From contig CAMAPL010000006.1 of NCBI GenBank assembly GCA_945860165.1, positions 1-64,000 on the forward strand: a stretch of 64,000 bases of DNA. The letters are read 5' to 3'. The position numbers and the translations under genes were made by a program. Origin of the DNA: Rhizobium sp. Q54. Lineage in GTDB: Bacteria; Pseudomonadota; Alphaproteobacteria; Micropepsales; Micropepsaceae. Positions 48,680-49,105 of this stretch are shown piece after piece (the stretch's first letter is position 1; every line of letters begins with the position of its first letter). Under the pieces are notes generated by a model. That model made no database searches. It saw nothing but the letters and a program-made list of their open reading frames with translations, and had not been told where the DNA came from.

Positions 48680-48994
48680 TCATACCGACAGTTTCATCAG
48701 CGCCAGCCCGCTCACGATCAGTCCCGCCGCTGCAAGGCGCATGGCGCTGGCCGGTTCACCCAGCAGCGCGATGCCCAGCGCGAAAGTCCCGATCGCGCCA
48801 ATGCCGGTCCAGATCGCATAGGCAGTCCCCAGCGGCAGGGCGCGTAGCGACAACGACAGGAACAGCAGGCTGCCCACCAGCGATACCAGCGTGATGATGG
48901 TGGGACCCGGGCGCGTGAAGCCCTGCGACTGTTTGAGATAGTAAGCCCAGACGATTTCCAGGGCGCCCGCGAGAACAAGATAAAACCAAACCAT
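48680..48994 (-). CDS. gdx: SMR guanidinium exporter (Gdx/SugE type)
   Basis: A 104-aa small multidrug resistance protein with four membrane helices. The essential Glu is in Gly-Ala-Leu-Glu-Ile-Val-Trp-Ala near residue 13. Gly-Phe-Thr-Arg near 25 and Leu-Pro-Leu-Gly-Thr-Ala-Tyr-Ala-Ile-Trp-Thr-Gly-Ile-Gly-Ala near 53 mark the Gdx (SugE) branch, which exchanges guanidinium for protons, rather than EmrE. The leader carries a guanidine-II riboswitch pattern (49014-49063), which supports guanidinium as substrate. Convergent with the EVE gene, only 7 bases apart. Confidence 0.9.
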   Translation of the reverse strand: MVWFYLVLAGALEIVWAYYLKQSQGFTRPGPTIITLVSLVGSLLFLSLSLRALPLGTAYAIWTGIGAIGTFALGIALLGEPASAMRLAAAGLIVSGLALMKLSV

Positions 48995-48997
48995 TAC

Positions 48998-49015
48998 GGC
49001 TCTTGCCTAAGAGCC
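48998..49015 (-). promoter_or_regulatory. Hairpin just before the gdx start codon
   Basis: A perfect 7-bp stem (48998-49004 with 49009-49015) has a four-base AGGC loop and ends three bases before the ATG. The only Shine-Dalgarno-like AGG is in this loop. It could be the expression platform switched by the upstream riboswitch. Confidence 0.55.
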
Positions 49016-49063
49016 GGGCCGTTCCGGGCGTTACTGGGGGAATGCGCGAGGTCGTCCTGCGCA
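49014..49063 (-). promoter_or_regulatory. Guanidine-II (mini-ykkC) riboswitch candidate
   Basis: On the minus strand two hairpins lie about 14 bases apart. The first (49043-49063) has an 8-bp stem with one bulged C and an ACGA loop closed by G-C. The second (49014-49028) has a CCGG/CCGG stem around an ACGG loop with an A-C mismatch at its closing pair. Tandem hairpins with ACGR loops upstream of an SMR gene are the hallmark of the guanidine-II class. Guanidine should turn on the exporter. Confidence 0.78.
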
Positions 49064-49105
49064 CCTTCAATCTAGGACATGAACGGGGAAATTCAAGTCT
49101 GCGGT

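What the first reader, a model, noticed from the sequence alone, without database searches (positions are those of the whole stretch)
48680..49063. Guanidine-II riboswitch with a third hairpin over the ribosome site
Two ACGR-loop hairpins precede a Gdx-type SMR gene. A perfect hairpin with an AGGC loop ends three bases before the ATG. The layout suggests translational switching by guanidine, with an extra expression-platform hairpin.
Basis: partly seen in the sequence, partly recalled or inferred. Interest (0 to 1): 0.65.

Follow-up and report, generated by a model that had tools for sequence, protein, structure and literature searches.

The report
Worn guanidine riboswitch before exporter gene
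A short RNA switch of a known kind, which should turn on a guanidine exporter gene when guanidine is present, sits here in a slightly damaged form; the extra hairpin is probably its off-state, hiding the ribosome site, so the find is mostly ordinary.

Summary
The features are real. On the minus strand, hairpins with ACGA and ACGG loops (49063-49043, 49027-49014) precede a hairpin (49016-48997) and an intact SugE/Gdx-like gene (48994-48680). Rfam's guanidine-II model gives 27.4 bits, under its cut-off of 32, but E = 0.0017 in the whole genome (next hit 0.89). Three sister genomes carry the leader at 43-47 bits, so guanidine-II ancestry is near certain. The third hairpin is not an add-on: it uses P2's last three bases and buries the ribosome site. 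In four same-genus SugE leaders the two folds balance within 0.6 kcal/mol; here the off-state is favoured by 2.8. This copy is worn: P2's closing G-C is A·C (G-C in the 49 other leaders that a pairing rule kept), the lost G being the base guanidinium stacks on, and AGGAGAG reads AGGCAAGAG. Such a P2/ribosome-site hairpin was proposed for Gloeobacter in 2017. Best reading: a translational ON switch, detuned in this strain. Two side findings interest me more: a P1 loop type CCACGN that Rfam mostly misses, and a second ATP synthase subunit a gene under its own guanidine-II leader in four related genomes.

The parts
48680..48994 (-). SugE/Gdx-like small multidrug resistance (SMR) exporter, 104 aa, intact
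   Evidence: PF00893 E 7.6e-27; best NCBIfam model SugE PRK11431, 106.8 bits, below its cut-off of 126; best solved chain 6wk5 (SMR family) E 2.8e-23 against 5.4e-9 for the best EmrE chain; dN 0.068-0.092 with dS 0.41-0.61 against three sister genes
49043..49063 (-). P1 hairpin, ACGA loop, 8 pairs with one bulged C (49048)
   Evidence: Rfam Guanidine-II alignment; sequence
49014..49027 (-). P2 hairpin, ACGG loop, 4 G-C pairs, closing pair A49023·C49018
   Evidence: marks the mismatch; the 49 other leaders kept by the script have G-C there (its rule demanded a standard pair, so mismatched leaders would have been dropped)
48997..49016 (-). P3 hairpin, 8 pairs, loop AGGC; its 5' strand shares CGG 49016-49014 with P2
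   Evidence: conserved in sister leaders
49000..49008 (-). degenerate ribosome site AGGCAAGAG (sisters: AGGAGAG or GGAGAG), inside P3
   Evidence: alignment; best pairing of the last 32 leader bases with the anti-SD -4.1 against -6.5 to -7.4 kcal/mol in four same-genus leaders
49069..49096 (-). possible promoter TTGAAT-N16-TAGATT, which would start the transcript near P1
   Evidence: read by eye; similar spacing in several sister leaders; not found by the consensus scan; inference only

Best explanation
The leader descends from a guanidine-II riboswitch that controls translation of a guanidinium exporter. Without guanidine, the 3' end of P2 is captured by P3, an 8-pair hairpin that buries the ribosome site. 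With guanidine, the P1 and P2 loops kiss and hold P2 closed, which removes three G-C pairs from the base of P3, leaves a weak small hairpin, and lets ribosomes in. In this strain the switch is detuned towards OFF: P2 has lost its loop-closing G-C (including the base on which guanidinium stacks) and the ribosome site is degraded, so it should need more guanidine, reach a lower maximum, or no longer switch. Shown here: the sequences, their conservation in sisters, the three-base overlap and the computed energies. Inferred: ligand binding, kissing, the direction of control and the detuning.
For: Rfam Guanidine-II E 0.0017 genome-wide, next hit E 0.89. Three sister leaders score 47, 46.7 and 43 bits and a fourth same-genus leader 37.6, all over the cut-off, each directly before its sugE. 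In all, 9 of 96 family genomes have a hit over the cut-off; the other five lie before three further SugE-like genes and two genes of another type, one of which is DUF1989/urea-amidolyase-associated by Pfam and NCBIfam. P3 is present in the sisters with the ribosome site inside it. P3 against P2 local energies, OFF minus ON: -0.6, -0.6, -0.6 and -0.2 kcal/mol in four same-genus leaders, -2.8 in the window. In 19 of 50 leaders with both hairpins, the P3-type helix meets a structural definition and has shuffle p <= 0.05; its pairs change in compensatory ways (position +2: T-A 9, C-G 7, G-T 2, T-G 1). The exporter is under purifying selection. In the solved P2 structure guanidinium stacks on G6, the base that is A here (PMC5486947 section 11).
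Against: The curated Rfam cut-off is not met. The free fold of the 101-nt leader is no better than shuffles (z -0.70, 54 of 200 as good), and although it forms P3 it pairs P2's 5' strand upstream. Across all 50 leaders the P3 alternative is usually weaker than P2 (median OFF minus ON +3.7 kcal/mol), so a P3 off-state is a feature of some lineages only; for sister L007 and same-genus L117 the ensemble puts the ribosome site in P3 only 0.14 and 0.26 of the time. The loose definition of P3 is met by 32 of 50 leaders but 24.2 are expected by shuffling. No transcript start, binding or expression data exist. A sequencing error at 49023 or in 49008-49000 cannot be excluded.
Confidence: 0.72

Rival explanations
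1. Fully working guanidine-II switch: the A·C closing pair is tolerated (for example as a protonated A+·C wobble) and the weak ribosome site is simply how this gene is tuned.
For: Both loops keep the ACG core needed for kissing, and C49018 is kept (in the crystal structure the partner loop's A7 bonds to that C). The gene is constrained. P3 stays perfect.
Against: G-C at that place in the 49 other leaders that the pairing rule kept. The OFF bias of 2.8 kcal/mol is outside the -0.6 to -0.2 range of four same-genus leaders.
Confidence: 0.22
2. Relic (an extreme form of the best explanation, so its odds overlap with it): sensing is lost, and the exporter is off, or expressed at a low fixed level through P3.
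For: Two changes at functional sites. A same-genus genome (G076, L116) shows what decay looks like: P2 loop AUGG, no recognisable P1, Glu13 replaced by Lys and 10 residues missing in SugE, yet a P3-like hairpin still there.
Against: The window's gene is intact and constrained, unlike that of L116. P1 and the rest of P2 are kept.
Confidence: 0.25
3. The off-state is another pairing (a P0 helix upstream of P1, or the P1-P2 linker), as modelled for Pseudomonas aeruginosa and E. coli, and P3 is incidental.
For: The free fold pairs P2's 5' strand with bases 5' of P1. In 8 of 50 leaders the ribosome site pairs mainly upstream of P1 and in 7 of 50 with the linker; for sister L007 the linker is the main partner (0.32). 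The P0 and linker models are in print (passages of PMC9561414, and PMC9300104).
Against: In the window and in sisters L109 and L110 the ribosome site's main partner is the P3 stem (0.46-0.47). The upstream partner would lie before the inferred transcript start.
Confidence: 0.1
4. Chance hairpins before an ordinary SMR gene; no riboswitch ancestry.
For: Below the Rfam cut-off; perfect 8-pair hairpins are not rare in this DNA.
Against: Alignable sister leaders over the cut-off before closely related genes.
Confidence: 0.01

Closest known systems
Guanidine-II riboswitch (mini-ykkC, Rfam RF01068)
   Same: Two short hairpins with ACGR loops and a linker, directly before a guanidinium exporter gene; all 48 model positions aligned.
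   Different: 27.4 bits, below the cut-off of 32; P2's closing G-C is A·C; ribosome site degraded.
Gloeobacter violaceus guanidine-II leader, as discussed by Huang et al. 2017 (PMC5486947)
   Same: A stem-loop overlapping both P2 and the ribosome site, mutually exclusive with the folded switch, was proposed there (passage).
   Different: Only named there as a potential stem-loop in one species; here it is a perfect 8-pair hairpin, kept in same-genus leaders, with pair changes across lineages.
Pseudomonas aeruginosa and E. coli guanidine-II leaders (PMC9561414, PMC9300104; passages)
   Same: Same aptamer type; translational control; ribosome site hidden without ligand.
   Different: There the anti-SD is placed in a P0 helix or in the P1-P2 linker, not in a P3 that reuses P2's 3' strand.
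SMR_Gdx exporters (solved chain 6wk5 and relatives; that this chain is a Gdx protein is recalled, the record says SMR family)
   Same: Aligned over residues 1-101, E 2.8e-23.
   Different: None of note; transport not tested.

Membership tests
Guanidine-II riboswitch (RF01068) | Score at or above Rfam's curated cut-off (32 bits) | tested here: not met
   27.4 bits; sisters 47, 46.7 and 43
Guanidine-II riboswitch (RF01068) | Two hairpins, each with an ACGR loop | tested here: met
   ACGA and ACGG
Guanidine-II riboswitch (RF01068) | G-C pair closing both loops (the G is the guanidinium stacking base) | tested here: not met
   P1 yes; P2 is A·C; role of G6 from PMC5486947 section 11
Guanidine-II riboswitch (RF01068) | Close upstream of a guanidine-related gene | tested here: met
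   SugE-like gene starts about 20 nt after P2
Guanidine-II riboswitch (RF01068) | Shared descent with accepted members | tested here: met
   alignment with four same-genus leaders over the cut-off
Guanidine-II riboswitch (RF01068) | Binds guanidinium and changes expression | not testable with these tools
   needs in-line probing and a reporter
SMR_Gdx exporter | SMR family, closer to Gdx/SugE than to EmrE | tested here: met
   PF00893; 6wk5 85.2 bits against EmrE 39.4; SugE model 106.8 bits but under its cut-off of 126
SMR_Gdx exporter | Residues G10, E13, W16, S42, Y59, W62 (set recalled from memory; the paper looked through gave no match to these spellings) | tested here: inconclusive
   all six letters are in the translation, but the list comes from no call

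The most novel reading that the evidence does not exclude
The window leader is a natural one-pocket guanidine-II switch: only P1 keeps a complete ligand site, while P2, with A in place of the stacking G, serves merely as docking partner and as the strand that competes with P3. It would show how far one of the two sites can be given up before control is lost.
Probability: 0.2. Interest if true: 0.4.

Novelty: new variant of a known kind. Interest (0 to 1): 0.3.

Why it matters
Guanidine-II switches have several proposed off-states (P0, linker, P2-overlapping hairpin). This genus gives a clean, energetically balanced example of the third, with natural variants: intact (G075, G070, G083, G080), probably detuned (window) and decayed (G076). 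It makes the P2/P3 competition model directly testable in small RNAs. The window element itself is of modest interest. Of the side findings, a second ATP synthase subunit a under its own guanidine-II leader would, if it protects the enzyme from guanidinium, name a cellular target of guanidine toxicity.

Tried and rejected
A free fold of the whole leader was uninformative (z -0.70). The order-wide Rfam search returned the same 96 genomes as the family search, so it added nothing. A loose count of P3-like helices does not beat shuffles clearly (32 of 50 against 24.2) and was replaced by the per-sequence test (p <= 0.05 in 21 of 50, 11 of them <= 0.01; the combined p of 2e-15 overstates, since the leaders are related). 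The SugE tree is poorly supported (7 of 50 inner branches starred) and does not decide whether the CCACGN type of P1 arose once (AU p 0.237). The promoter scan found nothing. 'mini-ykkC' with 'Alphaproteobacteria' gave no paper. Papers PMC5340285 and PMC5558903 are not held.

Rows dropped: of 91 leaders (80, the window, 10; the eleventh other genus hit, L108, is the same place as L007) the script kept 50; 7 had only one hairpin by its rule and 34 had no P2. The window's P1 and P2 were placed by hand in that script, because the bulge in P1 and the mismatch in P2 fail its rule. Rfam itself, at E <= 1, placed Guanidine-II directly before sugE (locus positions 1421-1483) in 37 of 80 loci, 24 of them over the cut-off; further hits lie about 217 bases (L015) and 249 bases (L061) upstream, in L040 at 419-461, and as second copies in L019, L022 and L026.

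Full report
What is there. On the minus strand of the window, a 104-residue SMR gene (48994-48680) is preceded by P1 (49063-49043, loop ACGA), P2 (49027-49014, loop ACGG) and P3 (49016-48997, loop AGGC), with ATG at 48994. It missed that P2's closing pair is A49023·C49018 and that P3's first three bases, CGG 49016-49014, are also P2's last three.

Is it more than chance? The Rfam guanidine-II model covers all 48 positions with 27.4 bits; the curated cut-off is 32 and the window-wide scan at cut-off lists nothing here. In a search of the whole 2.48 Mb genome this place has E 0.0017 and the next E 0.89. In 96 genomes of the family, 9 have a hit over the cut-off; among these are the three nearest sisters by SugE identity (G075 88%, G083 86%, G070 84%) with 47, 43 and 46.7 bits. 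G075 holds the same contig as L007, whose record is titled 'MAG: Rhizobium sp. Q54'. The leaders align, and P3 is kept: CGGCUCU-UUUUCGG-AGAGCCG, CGGCUCU-UAGG-AGAGCCG and CGGCUCU-CAGG-AGAGCCG. Descent from a guanidine-II leader is therefore hardly in doubt, even though this copy fails the cut-off. SugE itself is patchy: 12 of 69 genus genomes, the window's included, have it at E <= 1e-10.

The third hairpin. Because P3 takes P2's last three bases, complete P2 and complete P3 exclude each other. In the sisters the ribosome site GGAG lies within P3. Local energies (P2 start to ATG; no P1, no kissing, no ligand) give OFF minus ON of -0.6 (L007), -0.6 (L109), -0.6 (L110) and -0.2 (L117): almost balanced, so that a modest gain from ligand would tip them. 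The window gives -2.8; its P2 is worth -5.5 instead of -8.4. In the ON state a small remnant hairpin remains, so exposure is a matter of degree. The other family leaders over the cut-off (L089-L091, L093, L095) were not put through this calculation.

Wider survey. Of 91 sugE leaders, 50 have two recognisable hairpins (the others were dropped as told under Tried and rejected). Shuffling the part after P2 500 times, the P2-3'/downstream fold is better than 95% of shuffles in 21 of 50. In 19 of 50 it also fits the P3 definition, in lineages as far apart as Roseomonas, Paenalcaligenes, Dyella, sphingomonads and rhizobia. Pair types at the helix positions change on both sides. These pairs are read from predicted folds, which leans towards pairing. 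Against generality: over all 50 the median OFF minus ON is +3.7, and the ribosome site pairs mainly upstream of P1 in 8 and with the linker in 7. So P3 is one of several off-states in this class, not the rule.

What is odd about this copy. The 49 other leaders kept have G-C closing P2; the window alone has A·C (the script demanded a standard pair of any kind there for all but the window, so leaders with a mismatch would have been dropped). In the solved Gloeobacter P2 structure guanidinium stacks on that G (G6), while the partner loop's A7 bonds to the C, which is kept here (PMC5486947 sections 10 and 11 read). AGGAGAG of the sisters reads AGGCAAGAG; the leader's best predicted pairing with the anti-SD falls to -4.1 from -6.5 to -7.4 kcal/mol (-2.4 by the shorter scan). 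The gene is nevertheless constrained: dN/dS about 0.11-0.21 against three sisters. An ACGA/ACGG loop pair like the window's binds with KD 133 uM in E. coli (PMC9300104, table passage), so the loops alone are unremarkable. A 20-bp deletion over P2 in E. coli goes with constitutive gdx expression (PMC13064478, passages), which fits P2's strand taking part in hiding the ribosome site, although that paper draws the off-state differently.

A decayed relative. In G076 (L116) the P2 loop is AUGG, P1 is not recognisable, SugE has Lys for Glu13 and lacks 10 residues, but a P3-like hairpin persists.

Side finding 1: a P1 type. Ten of the 50 leaders have a P1 of the form GAGG[CCACGN]CCUC, two extra C before ACG, with P2 loop ACGG in 10 of 10, against 21 of 37 for ordinary P1 (Fisher p 0.01, not corrected for kinship). 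Rfam at E <= 1 reported one (L013) of the four such loci given to it (L008, L013, L024, L050), and the family search two (L097, L098; 26.3 and 25.3 bits) of the six genus genomes that carry it. A pattern search in the window's family matched 6 of 96 genomes with no match for the reversed control pattern; another family gave 3 of 36 with one control match; a sparse class-wide sample with a stricter pattern gave 1 of 385 with no control match. All ten loci from these three searches (nine distinct places) lie directly before a SugE-like gene. No search of papers was made for this form by name.

Side finding 2: an ATP synthase gene. In L019, L022 and L026 (Brucella-named records) a guanidine-II hit over the cut-off (34.8, 33.1, 34.9 bits) lies directly before a gene for ATP synthase subunit a, which is followed by a second guanidine-II leader and sugE. 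L040 (a Rhizobiales isolate) has the same gene order with a hit of 31.6 bits, about 265 bases before the gene, and no Rfam hit directly before sugE. The gene is PF00119 at E 1.5e-62 to 6e-67 in the three scanned (L019, L026, L040). These four genomes each have two PF00119 genes, while those of L014, L015 and L061 have one. The copy beside sugE keeps the arginine of S-x-S-[VI]-R-L-F-A but reads SHS[VI]RLFAVMLAGH, in 4 of 4, where the six other copies read have SLSVRLFANMLAGH (the other copy of the L040 genome, L131, was not read but does not match the pattern of the first). The start of the L022 copy does not align, perhaps a frameshift. A degenerate pattern for the changed stretch matched none of 385 genomes of a sparse class sample, so it looks restricted. 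A guess: a guanidine-induced replacement subunit whose site around the essential arginine tolerates guanidinium. That this arginine is essential is recalled. Searches for 'guanidine', 'riboswitch' and 'ATP synthase subunit a' together, and for 'mini-ykkC' with 'atpB', found no paper.

Verdict. A diverged guanidine-II leader with a P2-overlapping off-state hairpin; probably detuned, possibly dead. Known in kind; the P3 arrangement was foreseen in 2017.

Noticed in passing
L019 616-1818, L022 621 onward, L026 607-1818, L040 419-1818: A second ATP synthase subunit a gene (PF00119) lies beside sugE and behind a guanidine-II hit of its own, in genomes that also have an ordinary copy; it keeps the central arginine but reads SHS[VI]RLFAVMLAGH instead of SLSVRLFANMLAGH. 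Possibly a guanidine-induced, guanidinium-tolerant subunit.
   Followed up: partly
L008, L013, L024, L050, L111-L115, L118 (leaders; also L119-L121): P1 hairpin with a six-base loop CCACGN (GAGG[CCACGN]CCUC) instead of ACGR, before SugE-like genes, with P2 loop ACGG in the 10 unselected cases; the Rfam model mostly misses it. Possibly an unrecognised subtype of guanidine-II.
   Followed up: partly
L011, L016, L021 (Acinetobacter leaders): P1 with a five-base loop AACGA and a long P1-P2 linker.
   Followed up: no
L116 (genome G076): Decaying copy: P2 loop AUGG, P1 unrecognisable, SugE with Glu13 to Lys and 10 residues missing; the P3-like hairpin remains.
   Followed up: partly
L090 and L093 (genomes G021, G017): Guanidine-II leaders over the cut-off before a different gene; for L093 it is DUF1989 / urea amidolyase associated protein UAAP1, L090 looks alike by sequence.
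   Followed up: partly
window 49096-49069, minus strand: TTGAAT-N16-TAGATT, similar in several sister leaders, a candidate promoter that would start the transcript near P1; not found by the consensus scan.
   Followed up: partly
window 4451-4399, minus strand: Only Rfam gathering-level hit of the window: ffh sRNA (RF01793), 47.3 bits.
   Followed up: no
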